This document shows, piece by piece, positions 6,698 to 21,863 of a DNA stretch of 24,711 nt. Origin of the DNA: a virus; the IMG/VR virus record IMGVR_UViG_3300044846_001264, positions 1 through 24,711 of that record; one strand, 5' to 3'. The notes beneath the pieces are model-generated. The model worked only from the letters and a program-made list of their open reading frames with translations, made no database searches and was not told the DNA's origin. Each line of letters begins with the position of its first letter. The first letter of the stretch is position 1. The position numbers and the translations under genes are program-made.

Positions 6698-7012
6698 TCA
6701 GGCTGGATTGTCCTCGGGCGGTATTTCATCAAAAGGAAGAACGTTTTCTTCGTCCATGTCCATTTCCATATCCATGTCAGGTTCTTCAATGTCATCAGCC
6801 GATACGTATATGCCTACTACTGTAACCTTGCTGCATATAAAGCATTCGCAGACCGTTCCTGGCGACAATTTTATAGGTACGTTTACGCTAACTAACCGCG
6901 TCAGAATGTTCCCTTCCATATCTACACTTTCGGGTTCCCACACGCTATTTTCTTCGATCCAGCACCGTTCACAAAGCGGAACAAGATCATCGTTGTAGTC
7001 GCGTATGCTCAT
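6698..7012 (-). CDS. Hypothetical Cys-rich protein with acidic tail
   Basis: 104 residues. CERC (C14, C17) and a C-E-C-x2-C group (C55, C57, C60) could form a zinc-binding knuckle. The C-terminal 35 residues are very acidic and contain a short Asp-Met/Glu-Met repeat (79-87). ATG 7012 overlaps the stop of the methyltransferase gene by ATGA, so its translation is coupled. I do not recognise a family. An acidic tail suggests DNA mimicry or protein binding, without proof. Confidence 0.7.
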   Translation of the reverse strand: MSIRDYNDDLVPLCERCWIEENSVWEPESVDMEGNILTRLVSVNVPIKLSPGTVCECFICSKVTVVGIYVSADDIEEPDMDMEMDMDEENVLPFDEIPPEDNPA

Positions 7013-8872: not shown

Positions 8873-9291
8873 TAACGGACTCTTTTCTCTAGTTGGTGCG
8901 GTGAGTAATGTGCGCCGTCTAAGATAGGTTCTTTATCATCTGTAGACTTAAATATAATGTCGCCATAACGGATTCCTACAACCTTACCGCGTCTCCCGTT
9001 ATGAATAGCGCCAGTTGCGCCGTCATAAGCGCTAGCTTTAACACGCACTTCGTCGCCTAAAGTAATTGCGCCCGGTTGAGCGTCAGTCCATAGTTCATCA
9101 GGATTATTTTTTACTGCAGCATGTCCGAGAGAAAGACGGCTAAATAGCGCTATAACTTCTTTCTGCTGGTTCACCGACAAGGTAAGATCTTTCCAAGTTG
9201 CAAGAAGTTTAAGTGTAGCGTTGCCTATGCCTACTTTAGTCTTTGCATCTTGCATCTCAGATCTAACCCACTCATCATTAACTTCAGGCAC
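8872..9291 (-). CDS. Hypothetical protein with C-terminal SH3/KOW-like domain
   Basis: 139 residues. The N-terminal 75 residues look helical. Residues 77-138 contain GDEVRV, GRRGKVVGI and a closing strand and turn (HYSPHQLEKRV), a pattern typical of small SH3-like or KOW-like beta barrels that bind nucleic acid or protein. The start is GTG at 9291, made credible by a near-perfect AAGGAGGT ribosome-binding sequence (9300-9307 on the complementary strand) 8 bases upstream. It overlaps the dUTPase-like gene by 8 bases and abuts the next gene (TAATG). Function unknown. Confidence 0.72.
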   Translation of the reverse strand: MPEVNDEWVRSEMQDAKTKVGIGNATLKLLATWKDLTLSVNQQKEVIALFSRLSLGHAAVKNNPDELWTDAQPGAITLGDEVRVKASAYDGATGAIHNGRRGKVVGIRYGDIIFKSTDDKEPILDGAHYSPHQLEKRVR

Positions 9292-9769
9292 TGTAGTCTA
9301 CCTCCTTAGGTAAGCACTTCGAGCACATGTCCGGGCTAGCGCCTCTACCAACGTCGTCGATAGCTCTAGTGCACAGAGAACATTTTACGCCTTCTTCTTT
9401 AACTTTGTACCCTTTTAGCTGTCTTTCTTTATTGCGTTCCATTTTCTCAACGTAAAACTTATTGAGCATCTCGTCTGTTCCACCCGCCGCAACGATGATA
9501 TTTGCGACAAAATGTAGAACATCAACAGCTTCCTTAATTACTTCTTCACGGTCCGCGTAAGGGGCATCGTGCTGCCAAGGCTTCCACGAGATTGCCTGGC
9601 GCATCTCTGCAAGTTCATCGTCTACCGCTAGCATATTCCAACGTAGATACTCTACAAACCTGCGAATGTTCTGAGGCTTATCGCCTTCCATTTCTTCGTA
9701 GTTAATAAAGTATACGTCTTTTTGCAATTCACGGGTACGTTTTAACCAAGAATCAAATAAAATAGACAT
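9284..9769 (-). CDS. All-alpha NTP pyrophosphatase (dimeric dUTPase/dCTPase-like) with zinc ribbon
   Basis: 161 residues. The metal-binding pattern of dimeric dUTPase/MazG-type enzymes is present: E52 and E55 in DDELAEM, then E80 and D83 in VIKEAVDVLHF. Such enzymes hydrolyse dUTP and/or dCTP to the monophosphate and pyrophosphate; T4 gp56 (dCTPase/dUTPase), which removes dCTP so that hydroxymethyl-dCTP is used instead, belongs to this superfamily. After residue 128 is an added zinc-ribbon-like module, CSLC (130-133) and CSKC (149-152). ATG 9769 has GAAAGGA 5-6 bases upstream. Neighbours are two glycosyltransferases. Whether the substrate is dUTP, dCTP or another nucleotide cannot be read from the motifs. 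Confidence 0.78.
   Translation of the reverse strand: MSILFDSWLKRTRELQKDVYFINYEEMEGDKPQNIRRFVEYLRWNMLAVDDELAEMRQAISWKPWQHDAPYADREEVIKEAVDVLHFVANIIVAAGGTDEMLNKFYVEKMERNKERQLKGYKVKEEGVKCSLCTRAIDDVGRGASPDMCSKCLPKEVDYSA
9300..9307 (-). promoter_or_regulatory. Strong ribosome-binding site for a GTG start
   Basis: On the - strand AAGGAGGT lies 8 bases before GTG 9291. It is the closest match to the anti-Shine-Dalgarno consensus in the window and fixes the start of the 139-residue protein inside the end of the upstream gene. Confidence 0.7.
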
Positions 9770-9770
9770 G

Positions 9771-10790
9771 CTATCCTTTCTTAGAATATAGTTTAAGAGC
9801 GCTAGATAGCGCTATTGCCGCGTCAGTGCGTGTAGGTATTGCGTCTGTGTATTCCTTGCGTTGATCTTTAGCTAGTGTATTTCTTTCTTCCTGCGACATA
9901 TCTTCTATCCTTGAAGCCAAGTGCGCCCATGAGCTGCCTATCGCGCTGCTTTCACGCCAGTCGGTTGCTACGGGAGTTAACGTGTTGATACATTGTATAA
10001 GTCTGTACGACCACCATGTGCCGTTTAAGTGTGGACTAAATAGCGCGCCTACACCTGCGGCAATCTGGCTCTCTACCTGCGCGTCTGTCCAGCCCTTGTG
10101 CCACTTCATAGGAACGGTCGGCCTTTGTAATGTTGCGGTAGTTGACTTTACCCATGATGAAGAATAATTTTCTACTACCCACTTTTCACGGCGCTCTAGT
10201 TCTATAACGTCTTGATTATTTATAAGATAAGAATCTAAGCTTATAGGAACCAAAGAAGACGCAGCGCCTGCCGGTAGCTGAGCTGCTACTCTATCTTTAT
10301 CCTGCCATGGAAGTGAAGGATACAGTGTAGTTGGCCACTCTTTAGTAAGTAGATGCTCTACTATGTCTAATAAGTTTTGAAGCATGTTTGGCTGCGAAGC
10401 CGTGTCGTAGCCTTTGCGATACGAGTAAAAAGGCTTAGTTAGGTTGTCTGGGGTCTTAATAATTGCACGAAGACTAGACGTAATACGGTTAGGCTCTGGT
10501 GCATCTAAGAAAAGTACAAGTTTATCAGTGTCAAGTAGCACGTCTATTACGCTAAGTGCACCGTAGACTCTATTAGCGCTTAAGCTTGTTAGAGGACTTA
10601 GCCCGACTAAGACAGAGTCGTATTGATCTAAATCTTTAGTGTTCCATGAGACTTCAGGATCCAACTGTACTACTTCATGTCCTTGAAGAACTAGAACTGT
10701 CCGTATAACACTTGCAAATGACGCAGATCTAGCATTTGCAGATTCTGACGCATGAGAAGCAGACATGCCGGTTATAAGAATCTTGCTCAT
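9771..10790 (-). CDS. GT-B glycosyltransferase, T4 beta-glucosyltransferase-like (paralogue 1)
   Basis: 339 residues, predicted GT-B fold. Paralogous to the next gene: both share a start of the MSKILITG/MKVLMSGF type, a YDSVLVGLSPLTSL / YDVLWINLAPLNSL strand and loop, then LVLFLDAPEP / CVGFFDDWQF and RAIIKTPDNL / RALIRKPEML. In T4 beta-glucosyltransferase the corresponding strand ends in catalytic Asp100 (YLFTD); here it ends in D96. The late block TWWSYRLIQ (near residues 248-256) corresponds to the UDP-sugar-binding helix start. The likely reaction is transfer of a sugar from UDP-sugar, possibly to hydroxymethylated bases in DNA. It overlaps the upstream paralogue by ATGA and sits 1 base from the pyrophosphatase gene. 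The sequence is more divergent than paralogue 2, so loss or change of specificity is possible. Confidence 0.65.
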   Translation of the reverse strand: MSKILITGMSASHASESANARSASFASVIRTVLVLQGHEVVQLDPEVSWNTKDLDQYDSVLVGLSPLTSLSANRVYGALSVIDVLLDTDKLVLFLDAPEPNRITSSLRAIIKTPDNLTKPFYSYRKGYDTASQPNMLQNLLDIVEHLLTKEWPTTLYPSLPWQDKDRVAAQLPAGAASSLVPISLDSYLINNQDVIELERREKWVVENYSSSWVKSTTATLQRPTVPMKWHKGWTDAQVESQIAAGVGALFSPHLNGTWWSYRLIQCINTLTPVATDWRESSAIGSSWAHLASRIEDMSQEERNTLAKDQRKEYTDAIPTRTDAAIALSSALKLYSKKG

Positions 10791-11998
10791 GCCAAAGTCC
10801 CATCTGCGTTACGCTTAACACCTTTATCCTCGGCTACCGCGCGTTCAATGATGCGATTACAGTGCTCTACAAACGCAGAGTATTCTGGGATATACGGAGC
10901 AAGTGCAGTGCGTTGTGCCATGGCTGCTTCGTGTAGCTCTGTATCAGACATCTTCTCAACGTCGGTAATCTTTAGCTTATACGCATCACCAAGTGAATCG
11001 CCTTCGCCTTTGTCGGTTACAAGAATAGAACCCACATGCGCTGCGTATAGGAAGCGACTACGCCACCAGCCGGACCCCGCGTGTGGATACGGTGGAGAAA
11101 GAATTCCCCAGTGATGATTGTAAAACTCGAGGACGTCTTGTTCGGTGTCAAAACGTTGTCCACCAAGTTTTTTAATAAGCTTACGACTGCCTACAATTTC
11201 AACTGGCCAGTCTGGATCTTTCTTTTCTAACCAAGTATCATGCGGCATAAGAGCGCCAAGTACCCACGAGCGCTTCTTGCTTGCTGAAGACAGAGGCACG
11301 ACAGGTTGAAGTGTTGGAATAATCGTAGCGGTAGGGTCTAGAGCTTCAATAGGGCCAACTTCATCAGGCATACGCTTACGTACGCTAGATCTATCTCCAA
11401 AAGCGTACATAGGGCACACTGGAACCATACCAGCAGCCCATCGATCAGCAAGTAAGTCACGCGCAGCTTCAACTAATCTTTTTTCATACGGCTTAATGTT
11501 TTCATCGTTGTCCATCATGTAGTAGCGCTCGATGTAGCACTTTTTTGCTGCCGCAGGATTTAATTCTTTGACTCGCTCGAGCGCTGCCTCGATATCTGCA
11601 CGACTAAAGTACGTTGCGCCTTCTTCACCGCGATGTTCTGTGCCTACAAGCAGATGCTTATATAGCATCTCAGGTTTACGAATTAAAGCGCGTGCGCCGT
11701 TGAATACTGTGTTAAACTGCCAATCATCAAAGAATCCTACACAAGGAATACCAGATGACAAAGCGTACAGTGCGCCCATTGCCCCTTGGCGGCCGTTTAA
11801 CGAGTTAAGTGGTGCAAGGTTTATCCACAGTACATCGTAGCTAGAAAGATCTTCGCCTGGAGTAACTTTACGCCAGTCAACATCATGCCCAGCTTCACGT
11901 AGCGCTTTAGCAATAGACGCAGGCACGTCAATCTTCTGTATTGTGCGTTTTTCTGTGTTGATTTGCAACGCAGTGAACCCACTCATTAGAACCTTCAT
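10787..11998 (-). CDS. GT-B glycosyltransferase, T4 beta-glucosyltransferase-like (paralogue 2)
   Basis: 403 residues. Recognisable GT-B elements: an N-terminal strand with VPASIAKALREAGHDVDW (25-42), YDVLWINLAPLNSL (54-67), CVGFFDDW (86-93) with D91 placed like catalytic Asp100 of T4 beta-glucosyltransferase, a second Rossmann domain starting at KRSWVLGAL, and GSGWWRSRFLYAAHVGSILVTD where T4 has its UDP-binding RVWETMAS segment. The T4 Glu there appears to be Tyr here. Layout and length follow the T4 enzyme (351 residues) with an insertion between the domains. The start is placed at ATG 11998 because GAAAGG (12007-12012) lies 8 bases upstream; a GTG at 12004 would leave only about 2 bases. 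The 5' gap contains an inverted repeat. Confidence 0.68.
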   Translation of the reverse strand: MKVLMSGFTALQINTEKRTIQKIDVPASIAKALREAGHDVDWRKVTPGEDLSSYDVLWINLAPLNSLNGRQGAMGALYALSSGIPCVGFFDDWQFNTVFNGARALIRKPEMLYKHLLVGTEHRGEEGATYFSRADIEAALERVKELNPAAAKKCYIERYYMMDNDENIKPYEKRLVEAARDLLADRWAAGMVPVCPMYAFGDRSSVRKRMPDEVGPIEALDPTATIIPTLQPVVPLSSASKKRSWVLGALMPHDTWLEKKDPDWPVEIVGSRKLIKKLGGQRFDTEQDVLEFYNHHWGILSPPYPHAGSGWWRSRFLYAAHVGSILVTDKGEGDSLGDAYKLKITDVEKMSDTELHEAAMAQRTALAPYIPEYSAFVEHCNRIIERAVAEDKGVKRNADGTLA

Positions 11999-12027
11999 GT
12001 CCACTACCTTTCTAAGTAGATTTGGAG

Positions 12028-12061
12028 TATCACCTATTCACTGTACCAGGAACAGGTGATA
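12028..12061. repeat. 8-base inverted repeat between the ssDNA-binding and glycosyltransferase genes
   Basis: TATCACCT (12028-12035) and AGGTGATA (12054-12061) are perfect inverted copies separated by 18 bases that contain a small CTG/CAG dyad. They fill most of the 76-base gap between the stop at 12081 and the glycosyltransferase start. Possible roles are an mRNA hairpin that attenuates or stabilises transcripts, or a two-site operator. No T-run follows on the - strand. Confidence 0.45.
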
Positions 12062-12080
12062 AACCAGACGTACTTAGTCT

Positions 12081-12647
12081 TTAGAATGGAGCTGACGGTG
12101 GAGCTGCGACTACTGGAGCTTCTGCTACTGCAGCAGCGGCAGGCGCCGGTGCTGGTGCAGGTGCCGGAGCAGCAGCAGGCGCTGGCGCAGGCGCAGGTGC
12201 CGGAGCAGGTGCCGCAGCGGTTGCTGCGCCAGGTGTTGTAGCAGACGGGTAGTACTGCTTAATTTCGTTTTTCTTCTGACCTTGCCAGGTACGTGATGTT
12301 ACCTGTGCACGGAAAGAACGTCCACGAATTGCTTGCTCGATTTGAGCGTTTGAAGGGTTGGTTGCAAAAAATTCACGACCAAGACCTAGAGCGTACATCT
12401 TACGAAAGAACATGCCTAGTGCAGCATTGTTGTCTGGAGTAACTACGAGGTTATCCCAAACAAGACGCTTAGCATGCGCTCCGTTTTGTACCTGTGCCTT
12501 AACGGCAAACATAGTCTTGCCTGATTGCGAGACCTTTGCGGTAGCTTCTACAACTAGTAAGTCGTAATCGCCATCTGGTAGTGGATCATAGCCAGTTGAA
12601 ACTTCGCCGGCATCTTTAACTAAATCGCCCCAGTTAAGAGTACTCAT
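12081..12647 (-). CDS. DUF669-like ssDNA-binding protein candidate with Ala-Pro tail
   Basis: 188 residues. Residues 1-134 resemble phage DUF669-type proteins found beside Sak4-like ATPases: MSTLNWGDLV start, GYDPLPDGDYDLLVVEA (19-35), SGKTMFAVKAQV (42-53) and a WQGQKKNEIKQYY end. Such proteins are thought to act as phage single-strand DNA-binding proteins. Residues 135-188 are an Ala-Pro repeat with a final PSAPF; it recalls the flexible C-terminal tail of bacterial SSB (which ends in acidic residues plus PF) but lacks the acidic residues. The gene starts 2 bases after the stop of the Sak4-like gene. It is distinct from classic OB-fold SSB by sequence, so the assignment rests on family resemblance and context. 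Confidence 0.65.
   Translation of the reverse strand: MSTLNWGDLVKDAGEVSTGYDPLPDGDYDLLVVEATAKVSQSGKTMFAVKAQVQNGAHAKRLVWDNLVVTPDNNAALGMFFRKMYALGLGREFFATNPSNAQIEQAIRGRSFRAQVTSRTWQGQKKNEIKQYYPSATTPGAATAAAPAPAPAPAPAPAAAPAPAPAPAPAAAAVAEAPVVAAPPSAPF
12132..12227 (-). repeat. GC-rich Ala-Pro coding repeat
   Basis: Low-complexity stretch of GCN and CCN codons encoding about 32 residues of alternating Ala and Pro (residues 141-172 of the ssDNA-binding candidate). It is locally much more GC-rich than the surroundings and is prone to length change by slippage. Confidence 0.85.
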
Positions 12648-12649
12648 CT

Positions 12650-13423
12650 TTAGTCATTTCCTTTCGTTGTTGGAGTTGCTTGTGGTGTTGGCCCGAAGAT
12701 CATGTCTAGCATGCGCTCGATTCCAAGGTTTTCTTGTTCAACGATCTTTCCAAGTCGACCTTGTACTCGCTCGCCTGCTTCATATTCGTCTGTGCGTTCT
12801 ACGTACATACGACGTGCCTTAAACGGTGATTGCAGTGGGTCTGGATTTGGAAAAGTTTCCACTGTAATTGCGCCGAGGATGTCATAGAAGTAAGGTGCTT
12901 GAATTGCGAGCTGACCCTGTAGGTACGGACGTGAACGTCCGTCTGCTCCAGGACGCGCCATGGCAGTCAATACAACAGCTTCTAAGGGCTGTGTAGGGTG
13001 CATTGTTAAGTCACGCAGGTCACGCAGTAGCGCACCCATATGACGAAGCAACTCGCCCCATTGTTGCATTTTCATCTGTTCAGTACCCGCAATTGAATCC
13101 ATGCACTTCACTTGAAGTTCAGAGATGGAGTCAATGATAAGTGACTTGAACTGATGCTTTCCAGTTTGTAACCACTGGAATGTTTTGAGAACAACATCGT
13201 AGTCGCGAACGTTAACGACTACAGTATCCCAGGTGCCATCGGCAACTGGTGGTTCTTCTCGGATAGGGTCCCAATACTTAACGGTGATAGGTAGGAATCG
13301 ATGCCCACCTTCAACGTCAAGCATGAGACGTGGATACGGCGCGGTTACGGCGAAGGTTGATTTACCAACCTTTGATTCTCCGTAAACCATGATAGTCAGC
13401 GAACGTTGTACGTCAGACATCAT
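12650..13423 (-). CDS. Sak4-like RecA-family ATPase (AAA_24)
   Basis: 257 residues. Walker A is GESKVGKST (15-23, with K21), and Walker B is SLIIDS (94-99, with D98), followed by SELQ. This is the short RecA/RAD51-core ATPase type known as Sak4 or AAA_24, which in phages works with a single-strand DNA-binding protein in single-strand annealing or recombination. The neighbours fit: a candidate ssDNA-binding protein directly downstream and a Cas4/RecB-like nuclease upstream. The start ATG is doubled (13423 and 13420), with AGGAAACA just before; either can serve. No extra DNA-binding domain is visible. Confidence 0.85.
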   Translation of the reverse strand: MMSDVQRSLTIMVYGESKVGKSTFAVTAPYPRLMLDVEGGHRFLPITVKYWDPIREEPPVADGTWDTVVVNVRDYDVVLKTFQWLQTGKHQFKSLIIDSISELQVKCMDSIAGTEQMKMQQWGELLRHMGALLRDLRDLTMHPTQPLEAVVLTAMARPGADGRSRPYLQGQLAIQAPYFYDILGAITVETFPNPDPLQSPFKARRMYVERTDEYEAGERVQGRLGKIVEQENLGIERMLDMIFGPTPQATPTTKGND

Positions 13424-13453
13424 TGTTTCCTTTCATCTCTTGTTTGTGTAACA

Positions 13454-14380
13454 TTAGTCTGTTCTCTTTTCTTCTACGCCATAGTAAGCGTACGGATTAG
13501 AAACTTCAAATGCGTCTTCTAACGCAGCCTCAGCAGCACTTCCATCGTCAAACATAGGACATATAGAGAAGAATGAGCATTTCCATTTGCAATCGCGTGA
13601 AGGACTTGGGTACGCCGCAAAGCGATGATCTGTACCTTCGTCTAGCGCCTTACGTGTTGCAAGCATATCGGTAAGTGTTCCATGGATACGTTGCCAGAAT
13701 GATCTTAAAGCAAAGACGTTATGTCGGACTTCCATCTGCTCATAGAACGGAGGACGCGCATTAGCAGAACGCTTAACTTTCTTAAGCATAGTAAACAGTC
13801 CGCCTTCAGAGCGTTCACCTTCTTTGTTCTGCGCTGTCTCAAGAAGCATATAGGTAAGAATCTGTTCGTTCATGTGCGCCATTGCTGTAAAGTCGGTAAA
13901 TGACCCACCTACTGTCTTAAAGTCACGGAACATACGCACACCGTCAGCCTTACGACGAACACGCATATCAATCTTACCTTGCAGGATAACCTTGCCGTCA
14001 AAGAGTGGCATTTCAATAATCTCTTCTGTAGAGATCATCTCAAGCTCGGCATCAATACCGTTTTCCTCAACCCACTGTAGGTATCCTTCAAGCATTATGC
14101 GCCCTAGCTCGGCTTCTGAATCTAAATCGAAAGTATCTCGGCCTTCGTTCTCTAGTAGAATTTTGTCCTGTTCGACTAGTTGCGCATGAGCTTCTTGTAG
14201 AGGTATCTGCTTAGAGTAGTACATGTCCAGCGCTTCATGGACGCGTGAACCTAAGGCAAGTGCGCCTGTGAATGACTTTTGTTTTGGCTGTAGGCGACGA
14301 TAGTAACTTAACCACCAGCGTCTCTTACAATCTTTGTAAGTTTGAATCTCGGAGTTAGAGATTCTTATAGGTTGTGTCAT
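13454..14380 (-). CDS. Cas4/RecB-like PD-(D/E)XK nuclease with Fe-S cysteines
   Basis: 308 residues. The RecB/Cas4 signature is visible: SNSEIQTYKDCKRRWWLSY at the N terminus, GSRVHEALD with H48, D138 in GKIDMR, D153-F-K155 (the D-x-K catalytic pair), and Q173-x3-Y in NEQILTYMLL. Four cysteines, C18 near the start and C264, C268 and C274 near the end, are arranged as in nucleases with a 4Fe-4S cluster. The enzyme would be a metal-dependent exonuclease for DNA ends, supplying single strands for the neighbouring Sak4-like ATPase. The ATGA overlap with the helicase gene puts it in the same operon. There is no CRISPR array here, so it is not part of CRISPR adaptation. Confidence 0.87.
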   Translation of the reverse strand: MTQPIRISNSEIQTYKDCKRRWWLSYYRRLQPKQKSFTGALALGSRVHEALDMYYSKQIPLQEAHAQLVEQDKILLENEGRDTFDLDSEAELGRIMLEGYLQWVEENGIDAELEMISTEEIIEMPLFDGKVILQGKIDMRVRRKADGVRMFRDFKTVGGSFTDFTAMAHMNEQILTYMLLETAQNKEGERSEGGLFTMLKKVKRSANARPPFYEQMEVRHNVFALRSFWQRIHGTLTDMLATRKALDEGTDHRFAAYPSPSRDCKWKCSFFSICPMFDDGSAAEAALEDAFEVSNPYAYYGVEEKRTD

Positions 14381-16179
14381 AGCTTTCCTGCCTTATCGTC
14401 TTTGAGTAGTGAGAGAAGCTTGTCTTTATCTTTTACGATTTGTTCAAAGTTATCAGCCTTAGTTGATAGAACCTGGATAACACGTTCCTCAATAGAGCCG
14501 TCTGTAACGTAATCTGTAACGATAATCGAGTCATGAATTTCAGATCCGATACGGTGCACGCGGTCAAGTGCTTGCTTGTGGTCAACAAGTGACCATGGAC
14601 GTTGTAGCATTACAAGACGACGAGCTGCAGTCAAGGTAATTCCAACTCCGCCCGCCTGCGCAGTAAACAGAATCCACTTTAACTTGCCAGACTGAAAATC
14701 ATCAACAGCTTGCTGGCGTTCATCCTCGTTCTGTGCTCCAGTGATTAAACCATGCGGAATCTTAGCCTTTGTCATTTCCGCACTTAATAGCTCAATTAAC
14801 TGACGCGATACCGCGCAGACTGCAACAGAATCATCGCCAAAGTCTCCGCTGTTTATGTCGCTCATTAAAGAGTCTACCTTGCAAGAAGGCTCAGCAAGTA
14901 TTGCGCGCATCTCACCGGTGTCTTCGTTTACGTCCATTGTTGCATATGAACTTGCAAACTGAAGTAAACGAATAGTCTGCGTAAGCGCTGAAGGTGCGGT
15001 AATCGCCTCTCCCGATTCTAACTCTGCAATCATCGTGTCGCGCATCTGGTCATAAGCTTTCTTTTGCTTAGTAGACATCTCTATATCGCGACGTTCAAAC
15101 ATCATTTCTGGTAACCATGGTAAAACTTTTGCCTTAAGCATACGGCGCATGCGTGGATTTACAGTTGCGTAAAACTCTTGTTCCATGTGCGGCTTTACGC
15201 CTAAAACCATCATGCCACCAAAGGCGTTTAACATTACGTTAACCATACGATCAACCCAACGGGTCTTGCTTGGCCACTCTTCAGGCGATAGCCAGTGAAG
15301 GATAGACCATAGATCTAAAACGTTGTTTGCGATAGGTGTTCCCGTTAACGCAAAGCGAATATCCGCGTCGCCTGTTGCAGCCCACAGAGCACGAGATTGC
15401 TTTGACTTTGGCTCTTTAGAGCGGTGTATCTCATCAGCAATCACTGCCTTAAAGTCGATTTCGTTAAGTTCCCGCTTGTGAACCTCGCAACGATTTATTG
15501 TTGTTTTATCATCGTGCCCGCCGCAGTCTGTACAACGAGCTAAGGCAACCGAGCCATAAGGTGCAAGACGCGAGTGAGAGCGCAAGGACTCCCAGTTAAT
15601 AACGTATACGTCAGCCTCGCCCTCAAAGATCTTCCTACGCTGAGTTGCAGAGCCTTTGATAACTTCAACATCAACACCAGGCCACCACATATCAAACTCG
15701 CGCTTCCAGTTTTTCTTTAACGTGTTAGGGCAAACGATAAGCGCGGGGAATACGTCCTCGCCATTATCTTGAAGCTGCTTTAGCGCTCTAATTGCCTGCG
15801 CTGTTTTACCTAGACCAGGTTCATCTGCCAGTAACGCTCTACGGGCTACCGATAGGAATTTGACGCCCGCACGCTGGTGTGGGAACAGGTCCTCGTTGCC
15901 CTCTTCAAGGGTTTCTAGGTCACGAAGTTCATTAGCCGGGGTAATACGTGTAGTCACTTCGTTGGTTGCCCAAGAGGCCAATCTAGGGCCAATTTCAAGG
16001 TCAGTTTTGAAGGTAGACCGTAGCGCTAAGCACGTTGCCCATGATGCAGGCACAGCCCAGACTTGCGTCTTTGCGTCCCACTTTGCGCCAGGGATACTTT
16101 TACAAAGTTCCTTGAGACGCCACTCAGTATTTATTATTACGTGCTTGCCCGATTCATCGAGCTCTACGTTTACTGGCAC
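14377..16179 (-). CDS. SNF2-family (superfamily 2) helicase/translocase
   Basis: 600 residues. An N-terminal segment (1-80) precedes the two-lobed helicase. Motif I is DEPGLGKT (119-126), motif II is DEIH (249-252; usually DEAH or DEGH), motif III is ALTGTPI (277-283), and the C-terminal lobe has GGVGITLTAA and ALDRVHRIG (motif VI). Between motifs I and II is a cysteine/histidine insertion, C216-x2-C219 and C231-x2-H234, probably a zinc knuckle. SNF2-type phage proteins remodel or anneal branched DNA during replication and recombination. The start is GTG at 16179 with AAAGGA 10 bases upstream; no nearby ATG is available. The 86-base AT-rich gap upstream may hold its promoter. Confidence 0.88.
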   Translation of the reverse strand: MPVNVELDESGKHVIINTEWRLKELCKSIPGAKWDAKTQVWAVPASWATCLALRSTFKTDLEIGPRLASWATNEVTTRITPANELRDLETLEEGNEDLFPHQRAGVKFLSVARRALLADEPGLGKTAQAIRALKQLQDNGEDVFPALIVCPNTLKKNWKREFDMWWPGVDVEVIKGSATQRRKIFEGEADVYVINWESLRSHSRLAPYGSVALARCTDCGGHDDKTTINRCEVHKRELNEIDFKAVIADEIHRSKEPKSKQSRALWAATGDADIRFALTGTPIANNVLDLWSILHWLSPEEWPSKTRWVDRMVNVMLNAFGGMMVLGVKPHMEQEFYATVNPRMRRMLKAKVLPWLPEMMFERRDIEMSTKQKKAYDQMRDTMIAELESGEAITAPSALTQTIRLLQFASSYATMDVNEDTGEMRAILAEPSCKVDSLMSDINSGDFGDDSVAVCAVSRQLIELLSAEMTKAKIPHGLITGAQNEDERQQAVDDFQSGKLKWILFTAQAGGVGITLTAARRLVMLQRPWSLVDHKQALDRVHRIGSEIHDSIIVTDYVTDGSIEERVIQVLSTKADNFEQIVKDKDKLLSLLKDDKAGKL

Positions 16180-16221
16180 CTTTTGCGTATCCTTTCGTCG
16201 TTAAGTCGCTATACTAACAGG

Positions 16222-16264
16222 AAACTACTTAAATGTTATTACATTTCTACTTAGTATGTAGTTT
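16222..16264. promoter_or_regulatory. AT-rich nested inverted repeats upstream of the helicase gene
   Basis: The gap between the resolvase stop (16266) and the helicase start contains AAATGT-TATT-ACATTT (16231-16246), a perfect 6-base stem, nested inside AAACTAC (16222-16228) and GTAGTTT (16258-16264). An alternative small stem CTAC/GTAG (16247-16250 with 16258-16261) is followed by six T on the + strand. A cruciform, an RNA hairpin controlling helicase expression, or an operator are all possible. A clear -35/-10 pair was not found. Confidence 0.4.
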
Positions 16265-16265
16265 T

Positions 16266-16718
16266 TTATTGCAGAAGTCTTCTAGGGACCCAACCGAGCT
16301 TTACGCACTGCAATAAAGCGTGTCGTATCGCATCAAGAGCATGACCTTCACCACCCTTATGCCAATATTCCAGCTTCTTAAGTTTAGGGTTATCAAACAT
16401 TGCCTTGGCGTCGGAAGGTGACTGAAGTATGATGTCATCTGCCTTTCTTCCCGCGTCCATAAGACATTGCTTTAAGATACCGATTTGCTCGAGGCTGTAT
16501 GGAGCCTGAGATTTTTTTGCCGTCTGAGCGTTAATGATAAAGCGCTCGCAGACAACAATTACGTCAGGGTACTGAACAAGAGTGTCACGAATAGGCTTAG
16601 CATACTCTTCTTGTTGGTACTCTCCCGCCCAGAGCAAGACAGGCTCTTCACCGCGCTCAAACGAGAACAAAGTCATGCCTGTTGCCTTACCTGGATCTAC
16701 AGATAGGATCACTTTCAT
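16266..16718 (-). CDS. RuvC-like Holliday junction resolvase / RNase H-fold nuclease
   Basis: 150 residues with the RuvC-type RNase H fold. It starts with MKVILSVDPGKATGM, giving first acidic residue D8 in the characteristic SxDPG strand, followed by E58 in VVCERF and a terminal H126/D129 pair in GHALDAIRHA. These acidic residues coordinate two metal ions for cutting branched DNA. Length is close to bacterial RuvC (about 170). It overlaps the DNA polymerase stop by ATGA and ends 87 bases before the helicase start, consistent with resolving replication and recombination intermediates before packaging. Confidence 0.87.
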   Translation of the reverse strand: MKVILSVDPGKATGMTLFSFERGEEPVLLWAGEYQQEEYAKPIRDTLVQYPDVIVVCERFIINAQTAKKSQAPYSLEQIGILKQCLMDAGRKADDIILQSPSDAKAMFDNPKLKKLEYWHKGGEGHALDAIRHALLQCVKLGWVPRRLLQ

Positions 16719-18538
16719 CGATACTTTTCTCCCCAGTTCTCCATAGGTCCGTCAATTCCAGAAGTTAAAGGCACAGCCCAACCTTCGGTAGTAGTCATAC
16801 ATTGTTTTACAATTTTCATGATTTCCTGCGCGTCCTTGCGCGGTGCGTTAAGCACAATTTCATCGTGCACCGGAACGATTAGTAATTCAGTTAATTCTGC
16901 CTGATCTAGCTTTATTAAGTTAGACTTAAATACCTCAGCAGCTCCACCTTGAATTAAATAGTTAACAAGCGTGTACACTCGGTCTTCGTCGCAAGGTAAA
17001 CGTCTACCAGTCCATGTGTACACGTAACCTTGGCCTTCTGCCTTAAGTCTGCGCATACCGGCGTCTTCAATTTGTTTTTGAAAGAGCGACATACCAGGGA
17101 AGCGCATGTCAAACGCATCTGAAACAGTTCTCATCTGGCCTTCTGCTACACCAGCTGTAAGCGCTTGTTTTGCGACGCCTGCGCCGTAGAGACGACCGTA
17201 GACAGTTCCTTTGATGAGATTACGACGCTTGTCCGACCGTTGCATCGTAGGGTCGTTGTAGATTTCACGACCAATTTCAGTGAACGGATCTGACCCTGTC
17301 GCATCTGCACGGTTAAAGAGTGTGATGAGGTTTGGGTCTTGTGAGAGGGATGCGAACATTCTAAATTCGACCTGGTCAAGGTCACTTGTGATGATGACAT
17401 GATCTTCGTCCTTTGGGATAAAAGCAGTACGGACTGTATCGTCACCCTTAGGCAAAGTCTGCAGCGCTGGATTTTGTATTGACATACGACTTGTTCGTGC
17501 GCCAAGTGTCTTTACAGACGGGTGCACGAAACCATTTACGTTGTCATTGATAAAGTTTGCAAAGTACGTGTTAGCAAGCTTGTCTGCCTTGCGTTGTTTA
17601 AGTACTATCTCAGCAAGTTCTTTTACCTCGGAGTTACCTGAAATCGCTAAGAATTGTAGCTGATCTTTAGACGCGGACTTTTGACCCGAAGGTGTAAACT
17701 CGTTAATCTCTGCACCAAGAGATTCTAGCAAGCGCACTAGTTGAATGTTACTAGTTATAGAAACGCCAGCATACTTTTGCTGCGCCCACGACTTAACTTG
17801 CTCCGTGTAGGAAGTAAGCTCATCAAACTTCTTTCTAGAGTAGTCTAGGTCAATGCGCGCGCCATTGAGCTCCATACGCGTAACAATGCGGCGAGTCTGC
17901 ATTTCAAGCTCGTACGCTTTGTGGTAGGGCTGTCCTGGACCGCACTTCTCGTAAAACTGTTCCCATAAGCGCATAGTTAAGATGCAGTCTAACGCACCGT
18001 ATGACCAGTAAGGTTGAAAATTAGTAGGAACAGTTCCCCATGTCCAACCGTTCTTGACAAGCTCTTCATCAAGTGTACCTTGCAACGCAACCGCGCGGCC
18101 GTCAACGTGCAGAGCAGCAAGACGCTTAAGTGCGCCTGTGCCAAGTGGATCTATGATGTGCGCCATAATCATTGTGTCGTGCACTCTGTGCCAAGGTATT
18201 TTCCAACGCGACTGTATATCAAACCAGCGAGCTTCAAAAGCTACGTTATGGCAAACGATAGGTCCATCAAACTTATCCATAGCCTCATAGAAAACTCCGG
18301 CCCATTCGTCCCACGGCATAGCCCAGGACTGTTTACCATCGCCAACTTGAACTAAACGCAGTCTGCCGTGCCACGGTGATAGCGCATGGTCACGTGGGTT
18401 ACCTGGAAGTTCTCCAGTTTCAGTGTCAATTGCAACCGCGTTATGAGGTCGTCGTTCACCTAGCCAAGTTATAAACTCGCCTGCCTTTTCTACGCTGTCA
18501 ATTAAGTGAAGCTGAACTCCTTCTAAGTTATCAACCAT
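16715..18538 (-). CDS. polA: DNA polymerase I (family A) with 3'-5' exonuclease domain
   Basis: 607 residues from ATG 18538. Exonuclease motifs: D38-x-E40 (IDTETG), HN-x3-E near 97-102 (where DNA polymerase I has Asp, here Glu), and Y180-x3-D184. Polymerase motifs: A, SDLDQVEFRM with D386 and E391; B, the RRNLIKGTVYGRLYG helix with K443 and Y447; C, VHDE with H558, D559 and E560. Y447 occupies the position of E. coli Phe762; Tyr here is typical of T7-like and many lytic-phage enzymes. There is no 5'-3' exonuclease domain, as usual for phages. The start is chosen because AGGAAG (18542-18547) precedes ATG 18538; a TTG at 18550 would be without it. It overlaps the dCMP deaminase gene by 8 bases. 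Confidence 0.95.
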   Translation of the reverse strand: MVDNLEGVQLHLIDSVEKAGEFITWLGERRPHNAVAIDTETGELPGNPRDHALSPWHGRLRLVQVGDGKQSWAMPWDEWAGVFYEAMDKFDGPIVCHNVAFEARWFDIQSRWKIPWHRVHDTMIMAHIIDPLGTGALKRLAALHVDGRAVALQGTLDEELVKNGWTWGTVPTNFQPYWSYGALDCILTMRLWEQFYEKCGPGQPYHKAYELEMQTRRIVTRMELNGARIDLDYSRKKFDELTSYTEQVKSWAQQKYAGVSITSNIQLVRLLESLGAEINEFTPSGQKSASKDQLQFLAISGNSEVKELAEIVLKQRKADKLANTYFANFINDNVNGFVHPSVKTLGARTSRMSIQNPALQTLPKGDDTVRTAFIPKDEDHVIITSDLDQVEFRMFASLSQDPNLITLFNRADATGSDPFTEIGREIYNDPTMQRSDKRRNLIKGTVYGRLYGAGVAKQALTAGVAEGQMRTVSDAFDMRFPGMSLFQKQIEDAGMRRLKAEGQGYVYTWTGRRLPCDEDRVYTLVNYLIQGGAAEVFKSNLIKLDQAELTELLIVPVHDEIVLNAPRKDAQEIMKIVKQCMTTTEGWAVPLTSGIDGPMENWGEKYR

Positions 18539-19010
18539 TAGCTTCCTCAAATATCGTCATTTCAATGTTGCACTTAATAAAGTACTCCATAACTTTTTCT
18601 GGCTGTCTATGCTCGGCCTTTGATTGTATACGCATAACAACTCTAGACACACCAGAGTTAGAAACTAACTTCGCGCATTGCATACACGCAGCGTCTGTTA
18701 TGTATATTGTTCCGCCTTCAGTACGAGATCTATCAACGTACAGTAACGCGTTTGCCTCCGCGTGTATAGATGGGCACGCATCATACATGTTGTCTAGTGG
18801 CGCAGTGCCTTGCGCACGTGGGCACCAGTTAATACATTCGCCTTCGTTTGGAAAAGATGCAGCTGGACCGTTGTAACCAGTAGAGCTTACGCGTTGGTCT
18901 TTAGAGACTACAACCGCGCCAATTTGAGCGCGGCTACAGCGAGAACGCAGAGCTATAGTATCCGCAACCTGCATCCAGACTTCATCCCACGATGGGCGAG
19001 TGTTCGTCAT
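18531..19010 (-). CDS. Deoxycytidylate (dCMP) deaminase
   Basis: 159 residues. The zinc-dependent deaminase motif is H83-A-E85 in SIHAEANALL and C109-x2-C112 in AACMQCAK; E85 is the proton shuttle. The N-terminal half (SRCSRAQIGAVVV, TGYNGP) is characteristic of dCMP deaminases rather than cytidine deaminases, and extra cysteines (C59, C63) suggest the second zinc site seen in T4-type enzymes. It converts dCMP to dUMP, the thymidylate precursor. It lies between a 61-residue gene (ATGA overlap) and the polymerase gene. If the neighbouring synthase homologue uses dCMP, the two enzymes compete for dCMP, as in T4. Confidence 0.93.
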   Translation of the reverse strand: MTNTRPSWDEVWMQVADTIALRSRCSRAQIGAVVVSKDQRVSSTGYNGPAASFPNEGECINWCPRAQGTAPLDNMYDACPSIHAEANALLYVDRSRTEGGTIYITDAACMQCAKLVSNSGVSRVVMRIQSKAEHRQPEKVMEYFIKCNIEMTIFEEANG

Positions 19011-19192
19011 TCTGATAAGTCTCCCATACCTTCTGTTACCGATGCGGCAAGTACTTTTGCAACTAACGAAAGAGCTTCCTTACGAGAAAACCCTGCGCTT
19101 TTTAGCTCTTCAAACAGCTCATGAAGTTGGACTACCGCACTTCTCAGAGGGCTTTCATCTTCTTCGTACTTATCTATACTGTCGTTACCCAT
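19007..19192 (-). CDS. Small helical protein between dCMP deaminase and synthase genes
   Basis: 61 residues, acidic N terminus followed by two predicted amphipathic helices (SAVVQLHELFEELKSAG and RKEALSLVAKVLAASV). I do not recognise it. It overlaps the synthase gene by 8 bases and the deaminase gene by ATGA, so it is embedded in the nucleotide operon and likely real. A role as a partner of one of these enzymes is possible but unsupported. Confidence 0.65.
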   Translation of the reverse strand: MGNDSIDKYEEDESPLRSAVVQLHELFEELKSAGFSRKEALSLVAKVLAASVTEGMGDLSE

Positions 19193-20054
19193 TTGTCTTT
19201 GCCTCGTTCTTTTTAATAGCGGTAATCATCGCACGAGCGTACCAGCCTTCAAACGGGTGAAGGCTATTCACTAACATAGGCTCTTCAATATGCATTGCGG
19301 CGCTTAATGAAGACAGTGCGCGATCTTGAACTTGTCGCCAATTAAAACCTGTTATTGCAGGGATATCTTCGTAAGGCTCAGTCGTATACTTTAAGCTTTC
19401 AGCTGCATCGTAGTGCTGTTCATAGATATGAAGAGATCCGACATGGTGCGTATATGAACCAGGGGCAATTCCTAAAACAGACGCTACTGCAATTTGCACT
19501 CGTGTAAATTGGAAGAAGTCGTACGCTGCTCCTAGCCATACGTCATTTGAGCGCATGTAAACACTCATATTAAGCTTGTTGTCACGAATTCTAAACTGAT
19601 GAAGAATCGTGCAAGGGTAATCGCGCTTCTCCGGCAAAAGATCTAGGACTGGGTCCCATATAGTGACAACAGCCTGTCGTGAGTCTGGGTCGTTCTTTAA
19701 ACGCTCGATGATCGGTCCGTATTGATCTTGCGTGCGTGCGCCGTATGCTCCATGAAACATTCCGTTGTCTTCAGCGTAGTTCTTAAACATTGGACCTACT
19801 GCGACAACAAGTTTAGGAGTTGCAGCACCCGCAAGCAGCTGACAGGCTTCAACCGCACCGATACCTGGGACAGTCCCACGCCCTACGCCTAAAGGCAGTG
19901 TGTGCTTAATATCTTCAATGCGAATAACTGCATCTTCAATTTCACGCGTCTTCATTCCACGAGGAGCTGCCTCCCTGCCGTGCTTTAGAACGTGCTGAAC
20001 AAGGTCAACGTATCCGTTAACAGCGTCAGGTATGTTGATTATCGCAGTATCCAT
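19185..20054 (-). CDS. Thymidylate synthase homologue, probable dCMP hydroxymethylase
   Basis: 289 residues of the ThyA fold. Catalytic C148 lies in RDYPCTILHQF; SRQ (125-127) matches the phosphate-binding Arg region; MRSNDVWLGAAYD (167-179) and HIYEQHY are family blocks; E69 fits the general-acid Glu of synthases. At the residue that selects the base (Asn177 in E. coli ThyA) this protein has D179. T4 dCMP hydroxymethylase has Asp at that place, and changing Asn to Asp in a synthase is known to shift preference to dCMP. The tryptophan that guards the methylene intermediate in ThyA appears to be replaced (F90 or near). The product would be 5-hydroxymethyl-dCMP, though dCMP methylation or an atypical synthase cannot be excluded. 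It overlaps the kinase gene by 16 bases. Confidence 0.72.
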   Translation of the reverse strand: MDTAIINIPDAVNGYVDLVQHVLKHGREAAPRGMKTREIEDAVIRIEDIKHTLPLGVGRGTVPGIGAVEACQLLAGAATPKLVVAVGPMFKNYAEDNGMFHGAYGARTQDQYGPIIERLKNDPDSRQAVVTIWDPVLDLLPEKRDYPCTILHQFRIRDNKLNMSVYMRSNDVWLGAAYDFFQFTRVQIAVASVLGIAPGSYTHHVGSLHIYEQHYDAAESLKYTTEPYEDIPAITGFNWRQVQDRALSSLSAAMHIEEPMLVNSLHPFEGWYARAMITAIKKNEAKTNG

Positions 20055-21055
20055 GGATCATCCTTATCTTTTTTCGTAGATAGACGTGTAATAGCTTGGC
20101 CATACTCTTCTTTTTTAGAGTTAAAAAATCGACGTACGTGTTGCGGGTGTGAAGTTACGGTGTATAGGTAGTCAGGGATATTTGCATGGCGTATTCCACG
20201 TTCTGCAAGCCGTCCTAGAGCTACAACTGGTGGACGGCGTAACGTACACCATAGATCCTCAAAACGTTCTGAAGACATATCGTTTACATTAACTATACCC
20301 ATAGTCTTCCACTTATCAGATTCGAGAGCTGTAAGCAAATACTCGCCGGAGTTGCCGTCAACAGGCATGAAAGGAAGAATAGTTTCCTCGCCATATTTTT
20401 TAGTGATATTTCTTGTGTCACCTACAAGTAACACCCTTGGAAAACGTGGTCCGATGTACTCCGGAAACCTAGCAAGTTCCTGCGCGTCATCTTGTATGGC
20501 ATCAGCTCTGTTAATAATATGTGAAGCAAGATGTCCGATAGAATCTAGTGAGTCAGGTGCAGGAGTTAGACGTCCCGCCAGTCCCGCTGACATCGCCGCA
20601 GCAACTTCGTATAGACCTAAGATTTGTTCTAGCTCGTTTGCCTGTACGTAATCGTCACCGCGAGCGTTTAGACGACGAGTAATAACATCAAGAGGTTGAT
20701 ACAACCAAAATTGAGCAACACCGCGTGATTGAAGGAAGAGCTCTGTCCAACGCCAACCAGCTTTACCAAGGAGACCATATCCATCGCCAGAACCCGTCTC
20801 AGGGCGTTTTACCGCGGCGTAAGTTACCTCGCCCCAGTGCCAACGGTCTGCAACAGCTATGCGTTTTGACCAGTCAATATTTTCAATAGACGTGACGTAA
20901 TCCTGTAGGACCCAACGGCGAGTCATCTCATCAGGCTTAGACTTATGGTAAAACTCGATTTCTTTTTTAGGAAACTTTTCAGCAAGTTGTTTTTGGACTT
21001 CAGACACGAGTGTAGACTTGCCTGAGGCGTCTGTACCTTCGATTACTATAAACAT
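20039..21055 (-). CDS. Thymidylate kinase-like / UDG-like fusion protein
   Basis: 338 residues. Residues 1-185 form a deoxynucleoside monophosphate kinase of thymidylate-kinase type: Walker A EGTDASGKST (6-15), the DRW motif at 70-72 (as the DR[YF] of thymidylate kinases) and a REL-like lid ahead of residue 135. Normal kinases end near residue 210. Here residues 203-338 add a second domain with RVLLVGDTRN (207-216), PFMPVDGNSGEYLL (228-241), PPVVALGRLA (275-284) and TSHPQHVRRF (301-310), the order and wording of uracil-DNA-glycosylase-superfamily folds. The kinase would phosphorylate dTMP or a modified dNMP for the adjacent synthase. The role of the UDG-like part is unknown. ATG 21055 has AAAGGA 8 bases upstream. 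Confidence 0.75.
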   Translation of the reverse strand: MFIVIEGTDASGKSTLVSEVQKQLAEKFPKKEIEFYHKSKPDEMTRRWVLQDYVTSIENIDWSKRIAVADRWHWGEVTYAAVKRPETGSGDGYGLLGKAGWRWTELFLQSRGVAQFWLYQPLDVITRRLNARGDDYVQANELEQILGLYEVAAAMSAGLAGRLTPAPDSLDSIGHLASHIINRADAIQDDAQELARFPEYIGPRFPRVLLVGDTRNITKKYGEETILPFMPVDGNSGEYLLTALESDKWKTMGIVNVNDMSSERFEDLWCTLRRPPVVALGRLAERGIRHANIPDYLYTVTSHPQHVRRFFNSKKEEYGQAITRLSTKKDKDDPWILR

Positions 21056-21656: not shown

Positions 21657-21863
21657 CTAAATATCTTCTGCTCTAGCAATTTTTATTTTTCGTGGTACGT
21701 CTTGCTCTGGTTCTAGTTCTCCCTCAGGCGCGTTTAGCTCCGCGGTAAGAGCAATAATCGTTGCCTTTTGAACAGCTATCTCCTGCGCCAACTCGCCGAT
21801 ATGAGTGCGTAGCGCCGCAAGTACATGCTCGATCTTTATGTCTTGTTCTTGGTTATTTGTCAT
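21657..21863 (-). CDS. Small coiled-coil protein downstream of the tail fibre
   Basis: 68 residues with a long heptad-like helix (VLAALRTHIGELAQEIAVQ and on to about residue 45) followed by an acidic Pro-Glu-rich segment and a basic end. It begins at the last base of the tail-fibre stop (TAATG) with GGAGG upstream, so its translation is coupled to the fibre. A fibre-associated or virion role is possible; no family recognised. Confidence 0.7.
   Translation of the reverse strand: MTNNQEQDIKIEHVLAALRTHIGELAQEIAVQKATIIALTAELNAPEGELEPEQDVPRKIKIARAEDI

What the first reader, a model, noticed from the sequence alone, without database searches (positions are those of the whole stretch)
9284..21055. 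Candidate T4-like pathway for sugar-modified cytosine in an actinobacterial phage
The stretch encodes a dCTPase/dUTPase-type pyrophosphatase (9284-9769), two tandem beta-glucosyltransferase-like proteins (9771-11998), dCMP deaminase (18531-19010), a synthase homologue with the dCMP-selecting Asp (19185-20054) and a dNMP kinase-like fusion (20039-21055). These correspond in role to T4 gp56, alpha/beta-gt, cd, gp42 and gp1. Seen: the motifs and linkage. Known: the T4 pathway. Inferred: that the phage DNA carries glycosylated hydroxymethylcytosine, which would block host restriction. I know of no such complete set in a WhiB-encoding phage, but cannot check.
Basis: partly seen in the sequence, partly recalled or inferred. 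Interest (0 to 1): 0.85.

Follow-up and report, generated by a model that had tools for sequence, protein, structure and literature searches.

The report
Phage genes for sugar-coated cytosine
A group of lake-water viruses of actinobacteria carries what looks like a full enzyme set for swapping a DNA letter for a version with a sugar attached, as phage T4 does, but built largely from other enzymes and with the sugar part exchanged between relatives, which could hide their DNA from bacterial defences.

Summary
In detail: all six genes lie where stated. The synthase homologue keeps the catalytic Cys and has Asp and Thr at the two positions that best separate synthases of cytosine-modified contigs from plain ones, in 57 of 57 distinct proteins. 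The pyrophosphatase matches T4 dCTPase gp56 by profile. The two tandem proteins are paralogues without Pfam or PDB sequence matches, yet T4 beta-glucosyltransferase heads the structural list for both (Z 18.5 and 17.4, other GT-B enzymes close behind). New here: the sugar slot is exchangeable. Of 77 distinct intervals, 69 hold GT2-GT1, 6 another GT with kinase, phosphatase and nucleotidyltransferase before GT1, 2 GT1 alone; DSL-LC01 has a UDP-galactopyranose mutase between its GTs. GT2 relatives lie beside such a mutase in two T4-like phages and in an arabinose module in a third. The synthase groups with SPO1 dUMP hydroxymethylase, not T4 gp42, suggesting independent assembly. Verdict: new variant of a known kind; sugar unknown.

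The parts
9284..9769 (-). all-alpha NTP pyrophosphatase, T4 gp56-like dCTPase/dUTPase (inferred substrates)
   Evidence: PF08761 1.1e-10; profile of 13 relatives vs T4 gp56: hhalign probability 97.5%, E 8.3e-12, 113 columns, 32% identity
9771..10790 (-). GT1: GT-B glycosyltransferase of a phage family, in every relative whose interval is covered
   Evidence: AF2 pLDDT 92.2; best second-look match T4 BGT 1qkj Z 18.5, 3.6 A, 294 residues; D96 aligned with BGT D100, Asp in 22 of 22; 77 of 77 intervals
10787..12004 (-). GT2: paralogous GT-B glycosyltransferase in the exchangeable slot
   Evidence: AF2 pLDDT 85.6; best second-look match T4 BGT 1j39 Z 17.4, 3.8 A, 300 residues; GT1-GT2 hhalign E 7.6e-43; T4-like homologues beside UGM or in an arabinose module
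18531..19010 (-). dCMP deaminase
   Evidence: PF00383 4.6e-18; PHROG dCMP deaminase 2.5e-43
19007..19192 (-). small 61-aa ORF overlapping the ends of the synthase and deaminase genes, function unknown
   Evidence: ORF list; only a PHROG of unknown function at E 0.04
19185..20054 (-). thymidylate-synthase-family enzyme with dCMP-type active site, probable dCMP hydroxymethylase
   Evidence: PF00303 8.5e-29; D at ThyA N177, T at H147, catalytic C146 kept, 57 of 57; closest PDB sequence CMP 5-hydroxymethylase 3.7e-23, first thymidylate synthase 2.3e-21; groups with SPO1 gp29
20039..21055 (-). P-loop dNMP-kinase-like protein with a long C-terminal part; possible kinase of the modified dCMP
   Evidence: PHROG thymidylate kinase 4.4e-12; profile matches 2axp/3kb2 1.1e-11 and, weakly, thymidylate kinases; no match to T4 gp1 beyond the P-loop
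12081..12647 (-). conserved gene that bounds the sugar slot on one side; I label it SSB, by guess
   Evidence: synteny across relatives; no family test was run on it
7009..8274 (-). C5-cytosine DNA methyltransferase in the same region in relatives; role in this pathway unclear
   Evidence: PF00145 9.5e-21; PPCS and RxR motifs conserved in 39 aligned sequences

Best explanation
The region encodes a phage pathway for glycosylated 5-hydroxymethylcytosine DNA that works like T4's but is built largely from other enzymes. Proposed steps: the pyrophosphatase removes dCTP (and dUTP) and yields dCMP (inferred from gp56 homology); the synthase homologue puts a one-carbon unit, most likely a hydroxymethyl, on C5 of dCMP (cytosine choice supported by residues, product inferred from its nearest characterised relatives); the deaminase turns surplus dCMP into dUMP for host dTMP synthesis, since the close relatives examined encode no second thymidylate synthase; the kinase-like protein starts conversion of the modified dCMP to the triphosphate (inferred); the phage polymerase incorporates it; GT1 and GT2, predicted BGT-fold enzymes, attach sugar to the hydroxyl in DNA (fold predicted, reaction inferred). 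GT1 is the constant enzyme and the upstream slot is exchanged between phages, so the sugar or its second unit probably varies. Purpose: escape from host nucleases (inferred).
For: D177/T147 with C146, E58, Y94, R166, H207 and Y209 kept in 57 of 57 distinct proteins; positions 177 and 147 are the two that best separate modified from unmodified contigs in PMC8670742 (passages), and T4 gp42 has the same D/T pair. Closest PDB sequence a CMP 5-hydroxymethylase; tree puts it with SPO1 dUMP hydroxymethylase at 95/93. gp56 profile match. BGT first in the second-look structural list for both GTs. Slot exchange for a GT-kinase-HAD-nucleotidyltransferase set or GT-UGM. T4-like GT2 homologues sit beside UGM or in an arabinose module, in phages with a second, D177-type synthase. 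GT2 had no confirmed relative in a scan of genomes of 84,980 prokaryote species, as expected for a phage-specific rather than a surface-glycan family.
Against: No nucleoside chemistry. An N177D change alone turns a thymidylate synthase towards dCMP with a methyl product (PMC8670742 passage), so 5-methyl is possible. BGT leads SenB by only 0.6 (GT2) and 1.3 (GT1) in Z, Foldseek's own first 50 for GT1 lack BGT, and no sequence link to BGT was found. BGT D100 falls on GT2 D93, only 17 of 21 Asp; BGT E22, R191 and E272 have no conserved counterpart in my alignment. The kinase does not match gp1. A conserved, apparently intact C5-methyltransferase needs unmodified cytosine. Of the nine phage records with a GT2 hit that I examined (of 57 found), one (Vibrio 6E35.1a, an 84-aa match) has only a N177 synthase. 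The genome scan used a single short peptide pattern and would miss divergent relatives. The lead of CMP hydroxymethylase over thymidylate synthases in the PDB search is small, and the tree has long branches.
Confidence: 0.72

Rival explanations
1. The synthase makes 5-hydroxy-dCMP, as in RB69-type phages, and the GTs attach arabinose directly to the C5 oxygen.
For: GT2 homologue Rgz1 gp40 lies in an RB69-type module with an arabinose-5-phosphate isomerase and a synthase of that type; RB69 and NP chemistry from PMC13390438 (passages).
Against: At ThyA positions 21, 169 and 209 the window synthase has R, D, Y (57 of 57 relatives too) and T4 gp42 K, D, Y, where RB69 048c and Rgz1 gp33 have S, N, F; those two form a separate pair at 100/100 in the tree. 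No isomerase or NDP-sugar gene between 9284 and 12647 of the window. Only two sequences of that type were compared.
Confidence: 0.1
2. The synthase makes 5-methyl-dCMP (dCMP methylase); the GTs act on something else such as virion glycans.
For: A single N to D change gives this activity (PMC8670742 passage). The window has a second GT island at 86-5126, so the phage may make glycans.
Against: Nearest characterised relatives are hydroxymethylases. The E. coli W80 position is K, A, T, S or I in the relatives and G in SPO1 gp29, but W in ThyA and also in T4 gp42, so this residue is only suggestive. GT1 abuts the pyrophosphatase gene and precedes it in 77 of 77 intervals (gaps between match ends 3 to 53 bases in 139 loci, repeats included).
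Confidence: 0.1
3. Ordinary dTTP supply: plain thymidylate synthase, dUTPase, dCMP deaminase and thymidylate kinase next to unrelated glycosyltransferases.
For: Public annotation calls the homologues thymidylate synthase and kinase. The 14 close-relative records searched, some of them partial, have only this one synthase and no ThyX.
Against: D177 and T147 in 57 of 57, N177 or H147 in none of them; not with ThyA in the tree.
Confidence: 0.05
4. 5-methylcytosine made by the phage C5-methyltransferase is oxidised by a TET enzyme and then glycosylated.
For: C5-methyltransferase conserved in the same region; two contigs have sub-threshold Tet_JBP matches, E 1-2e-4.
Against: 0 of 17 records over the Tet_JBP cut-off; the dCMP-type synthase would be superfluous.
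Confidence: 0.03

Closest known systems
T4 glucosyl-hydroxymethylcytosine pathway (gp56, gp42, gp1, cd, alpha/beta-gt)
   Same: dCTPase homology by profile; cytosine-selecting synthase-family enzyme; dCMP deaminase; two GT-B proteins whose best second-look structural match is BGT.
   Different: Synthase groups with SPO1 dUMP hydroxymethylase, not gp42; kinase not detectably gp1; GTs without sequence link to BGT and paralogous to each other; no separate dTMP synthase in 14 of 14 close-relative records; C5-methyltransferase present; sugar unknown and slot exchangeable.
RB69/NP arabinosyl-hydroxycytosine pathway (PMC6024577, PMC13390438; passages read)
   Same: A GT2 homologue occurs inside such a module in Morganella phage Rgz1; tandem GTs could add two sugars.
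   Different: Synthase lacks the RB69 048c residue pattern; no arabinose genes beside the window's GTs; GTs do not match RB69 ORF003c by profile.
Actinomycetia phage DSL-LC01 (OQ999401; PMC10611076 passages)
   Same: Same gene order, kinase-synthase-deaminase-polymerase-...-GT-GT-pyrophosphatase-methyltransferase-WhiB; synthase 63.6% identical.
   Different: UDP-galactopyranose mutase between its GTs; its GT2 only 28.6% identical. The paper reads the mutase as a host cell-wall gene and its main text has no occurrence of 'thymidylate'.
Gordonia phages GMA2, GodonK, Forza
   Same: Homologues of GT1, GT2, pyrophosphatase, deaminase, kinase, C5-methyltransferase and the D177 synthase.
   Different: Extra GTs in the slot; synthase 33-37% identical over aligned columns, kinase 22-28%; GMA2 also has ThyX.
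Thanatos deoxypentose-cytosine (PMC12838424; passages)
   Same: dCTPase, deaminase, synthase-family enzyme and a GT-like protein; a pyrophosphorylase that activates a pentose, comparable in role to the nucleotidyltransferase of the alternative cassette.
   Different: Shewanella phage; its mass spectra point to a pentose on a C5 oxygen, without a CH2 group.

Membership tests
dCMP-directed thymidylate-synthase family (gp42 type) | catalytic Cys and synthase family | tested here: met
   C146 equivalent 57 of 57; PF00303
dCMP-directed thymidylate-synthase family (gp42 type) | Asp at ThyA N177 and Thr, not His, at 147 | tested here: met
   D and T in 57 of 57 and in three Gordonia phages; T4 gp42 also D and T
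dCMP-directed thymidylate-synthase family (gp42 type) | belongs to the T4 gp42 clade | tested here: inconclusive
   tree of 23 rows joins it with SPO1 gp29 at 95/93, apart from gp42; long branches are flagged
dCMP-directed thymidylate-synthase family (gp42 type) | hydroxymethyl product from dCMP | not testable with these tools
   needs enzyme assay
T4 beta-glucosyltransferase | GT-B fold over the full chain | tested here: met
   GT1 Z 18.5 over 294 residues, GT2 Z 17.4 over 300; SenB and PimA close behind; models, not structures
T4 beta-glucosyltransferase | detectable sequence homology | tested here: not met
   hhalign probability 3.9% and 2.5%; no BGT in the PDB profile searches
T4 beta-glucosyltransferase | catalytic Asp at D100 | tested here: inconclusive
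   GT1 D96 22 of 22; GT2 D93 17 of 21, with the invariant D94 one residue off; sequence alignment only, no superposition available
T4 beta-glucosyltransferase | UDP-glucose donor and hmC DNA acceptor | not testable with these tools
   needs enzyme assay
T4 gp56 dCTPase | profile homology over the conserved core and C-terminal motif | tested here: met
   97.5%, E 8.3e-12, 113 columns
T4 gp56 dCTPase | hydrolyses dCTP | not testable with these tools
   needs enzyme assay
T4 gp1 dNMP kinase | sequence homology beyond the P-loop | tested here: not met
   hhalign probability 2.0%, 26 columns at the P-loop
RB69-type 5-hydroxycytosine arabinosylation | 5-hodCMP-synthase residue pattern (S21, N169, F209; my reading of two sequences) | tested here: not met
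   window has R21, D169, Y209
RB69-type 5-hydroxycytosine arabinosylation | sugar-activation genes beside the GTs | tested here: not met
   none between 9284 and 12647 in the window; the rest of this phage genome lies outside the record
TET-based cytosine hypermodification | Tet_JBP dioxygenase | tested here: not met
   0 of 17 relatives' records over the cut-off, two weak sub-threshold matches; some records are partial

The most novel reading that the evidence does not exclude
These actinobacterial phages have an independently assembled cytosine-glycosylation system with a constant transferase (GT1) and an interchangeable sugar cassette, so that related phages decorate their DNA with different sugars; in DSL-LC01 the cassette would supply a furanose (galactofuranose or a similar furanosyl sugar made by the mutase between the GTs). 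That would be a modular, swappable sugar coat on DNA and, to my knowledge, the first furanosyl-hexose on a base.
Probability: 0.3. Interest if true: 0.82.

Novelty: new variant of a known kind. Interest (0 to 1): 0.62.

Why it matters
Glycosylated cytosine is best known from T4-like phages of proteobacteria. If right, a widespread freshwater group, with cultured Gordonia relatives, makes it too, using a synthase closer to SPO1's dUMP hydroxymethylase. The exchange of sugar genes at one fixed place looks like an arms race over which sugar the host's modification-dependent nucleases recognise, and it can be tested directly in the Gordonia phages by nucleoside mass spectrometry. It would also re-read published annotations, such as the DSL-LC01 mutase called a cell-wall gene.

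Tried and rejected
Plain thymidylate synthase: rejected on residues and tree. TET route: no match over cut-off in 17 records. Sequence search of the GT profiles against PDB chains: one irrelevant weak match each. Profile comparison of GT1/GT2 with T4 b-gt and RB69 ORF003c: nothing significant. Kinase against T4 gp1: only the P-loop. Window DNA against phage records by megablast: no match. GT2 profile in prokaryote genomes: 110 pattern matches, none confirmed; a single short pattern, so weak evidence. The alternative-cassette kinase against PDB: no useful match. NTP_transferase in 17 records: 1, the contig with the alternative cassette. The paper most likely to overlap, on glycosylated 5-hydroxycytosine in diverse viruses (cited as a 2025 preprint in PMC13390438), was not held, so I cannot say whether it covers these phages; the Cell Host Microbe 2025 arabinosylation paper was also not read. 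The 2015 Gordonia phage paper (passages) says glycosyltransferase genes may protect phage DNA in general and names GMA2 orf4 and orf22, not orf53-56; every passage with 'restriction' or 'digest' was shown, and none reports a restriction test of GMA2 DNA.


Full report
WHAT IS THERE. The window is a 24,711-base virus record with no megablast match among 50,697 phage records. All six genes of the finding are present at the stated places on the - strand. A 65-kb IMG/VR contig carries the same genes at 99.8-100% protein identity (L005). WhiB (5147-5659, PF02467 4.5e-17) and kinship with DSL-LC01 and Gordonia phages fit an actinobacterial host; the host itself was not shown.

THE SYNTHASE. It is a PF00303 protein (8.5e-29). 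It was aligned with E. coli ThyA, T4 gp42, SPO1 gp29, RB69 048c and relatives. The relatives are 57 distinct proteins with bit score 200 or more among the ORFs of 171 loci: 56 from loci of the synthase query, one of them identical to the window's over its last 280 residues, and DSL-LC01's. All 57 have Asp at ThyA position 177 and Thr at 147, and keep E58, Y94, C146, R166, H207 and Y209. The same D/T pair is in T4 gp42, RB69 048c, Rgz1 gp33, the second synthases of Erwinia FBB1 and Aeromonas 25, three Gordonia phages and the Manatee Spring phage; ThyA and the two canonical phage synthases compared have N/H; SPO1 gp29 has N/N. MetaGPA (PMC8670742, passages) found 177 and 147 the two positions that best separate modified from unmodified contigs, with Asp mostly at 177 in the modified ones. 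So cytosine as substrate is well supported. The product is inferred: the best PDB sequence matches are CMP 5-hydroxymethylases (3.7e-23), narrowly ahead of thymidylate synthases (2.3e-21), and a tree of 23 rows joins the clade with SPO1 dUMP hydroxymethylase (95/93), apart from gp42, with long-branch warnings. The simplest reading is a hydroxymethylase that became cytosine-directed independently of T4.

THE OTHER NUCLEOTIDE ENZYMES. The pyrophosphatase profile (13 sequences) matches T4 gp56 at 97.5%, E 8.3e-12 over 113 columns, while its PDB matches are dUTPases over some 40-50 residues; dCTP and dUTP are both plausible substrates. The deaminase is clear. The kinase-like protein has a P-loop and matches a phage thymidylate-kinase PHROG, but not T4 gp1; its C-terminal part is unexplained. 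All 22 records searched have a PF00303 gene: 19 have one, and three T4-like ones (FBB1, Rgz1, Aeromonas 25) have two. ThyX was found in 1 of 22, GMA2. The 14 records of close relatives (13 IMG/VR contigs, some partial, and DSL-LC01) thus seem to depend on the host for dTMP, and the deaminase would feed it.

THE TRANSFERASES. GT1 and GT2 have no Pfam match and no relevant PDB sequence match by profile, but are paralogues (hhalign E 7.6e-43). AlphaFold2 models from window and IMG/VR sequences are confident (pLDDT 92.2 and 85.6). In the second-look alignment T4 BGT is first for both: GT1 Z 18.5, 3.6 A, 294 residues; GT2 Z 17.4, 3.8 A, 300 residues. The lead is small: SenB 17.2 (GT1) and 16.8 (GT2), PimA 15.7 and 16.5, T4 AGT 15.4 and 15.6. 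In Foldseek's own order BGT is second for GT2 and not among the 50 listed for GT1. BGT D100 aligns with GT1 D96 (22 of 22) and GT2 D93 (17 of 21), BGT R269 with GT2 R317 (21 of 21) and GT1 R263 (17 of 22); BGT E22, R191 and E272 have no conserved counterpart in that alignment (the role of D100 is recalled, helped by the title of PDB 1nzd). Among predicted viral structures GT1 has five close relatives, one from Gordonia phage Phendrix, one from an uncultured virus and three without a name at hand, then a wide gap.

THE EXCHANGEABLE SLOT. Between a conserved gene I label SSB (12081-12647; a guess) and the pyrophosphatase, 77 distinct intervals (49 duplicates dropped) hold GT2-GT1 in 69, a different GT followed by an APH-like kinase, a HAD hydrolase and a nucleotidyltransferase and then GT1 in 6, and GT1 alone in 2. 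These counts are biased by retrieval: besides 80 synthase loci, the loci came from two GT2 queries and one with the alternative GT (16 loci). In loci retrieved by the synthase alone, 43 distinct SSB copies are followed by GT2 in 32, the alternative GT in 5, GT1 directly in 2, and the contig end in 4. The nucleotidyltransferase matches NTP_transf_3 and NTP_transferase, 6e-16 and 1.3e-9, and sugar-1-phosphate thymidylyltransferases in PDB (8.3e-6); the kinase and HAD matches are weak. In DSL-LC01 a UDP-galactopyranose mutase lies between the two GTs; its authors read it as a cell-wall gene (PMC10611076, passages). Aeromonas 25 and Erwinia FBB1 have a GT2 homologue next to a mutase, and Morganella Rgz1 has one between an NDP-sugar protein and an arabinose-5-phosphate isomerase, near a synthase of the RB69 048c type. 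The mutase family was found in 3 of 22 records, DSL-LC01, FBB1 and Aeromonas 25. GT1 diverges faster than its neighbours: median identity to the window 44.5%, against 68 (TS), 80 (PolA), 70.5 (pyrophosphatase) and 73 (GT2), over 32 loci, 30 for GT2.

HOW IT MOST LIKELY WORKS. As in Best explanation. Shown here: gene content, active-site residues, predicted folds, conservation of linkage, slot exchange. Inferred: hydroxymethyl product, DNA as acceptor, order of sugar addition, protection from host nucleases. The conserved C5-methyltransferase (39 aligned sequences) suggests that replacement of cytosine may be partial, or that the methyltransferase acts elsewhere; this is unexplained.

RELATION TO WHAT IS KNOWN. 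It works like the T4 pathway; membership of individual enzymes in the T4 families is met for gp56, not met for gp1, not met by sequence but suggested by fold for BGT, and inconclusive for the gp42 clade. Ten paper searches listed no paper whose title or abstract start describes glycosylated cytosine or this gene set as DNA modification in an actinobacterial phage; only open-licence papers were searched, most were seen as listings only, and the preprint most likely to overlap was not held.

VERDICT. New variant of a known kind, interest 0.62.

Noticed in passing
7009-8274: C5-cytosine methyltransferase with conserved PPCS and RxR motifs in a phage expected to replace cytosine; Gordonia relatives GMA2 and Forza also carry it near WhiB.
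   Followed up: partly
6138-6665: Pyrimidine-dimer DNA glycosylase (PF03013 4.3e-20), the family of T4 endonuclease V by recall; also in relatives and DSL-LC01.
   Followed up: no
86-5126: A second glycosyltransferase island: a GT4-like gene, two GT25 genes and a GT2-TPR-methyltransferase fusion on the + strand, then an Anp1/GT2-like gene on the - strand; DSL-LC01 has a GT, a tryptophan halogenase and collagen-like genes beyond its WhiB gene. GT25 includes collagen-glycosylating enzymes (recalled), so this may decorate virion proteins.
   Followed up: partly
21863-24685: A 940-aa fibre-like protein rich in short repeats of the type NAITAGKIDANAVTA, with long antisense ORFs that are probably spurious.
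   Followed up: no
L088, L095, L104, L123 (about 10849-11892 in L088 and L123): An extra family-2 glycosyltransferase (PF13704 5.4e-14 in L123) inserted between the synthase and the deaminase; read in L088 and L123, and suggested by the gap in L095 and L104.
   Followed up: partly
GT1 9771-10790 and relatives: GT1 is the universal but fastest-diverging gene of the module (median 44.5% identity against 68-80% for neighbours).
   Followed up: partly
Gordonia phage GMA2 record 44111-44686: GMA2 carries ThyX besides the D177 synthase, alone among 22 records searched, which fits the D177 enzyme not being its dTMP synthase.
   Followed up: no
records G009 and G012 (contigs of L123 and L108): Sub-threshold Tet_JBP-like matches (E 1-2e-4, 65 aa), perhaps a 2-oxoglutarate oxygenase.
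   Followed up: no
8338-8661: DUF6378 protein (3.8e-29), function unknown.
   Followed up: no
MW202657, 20529-34400: A 56-kb spring-water phage has a GT2 homologue, a D177 synthase annotated pyrimidine hmase, an NTP-PPase-like protein and an annotated deaminase: a distant parallel set.
   Followed up: partly
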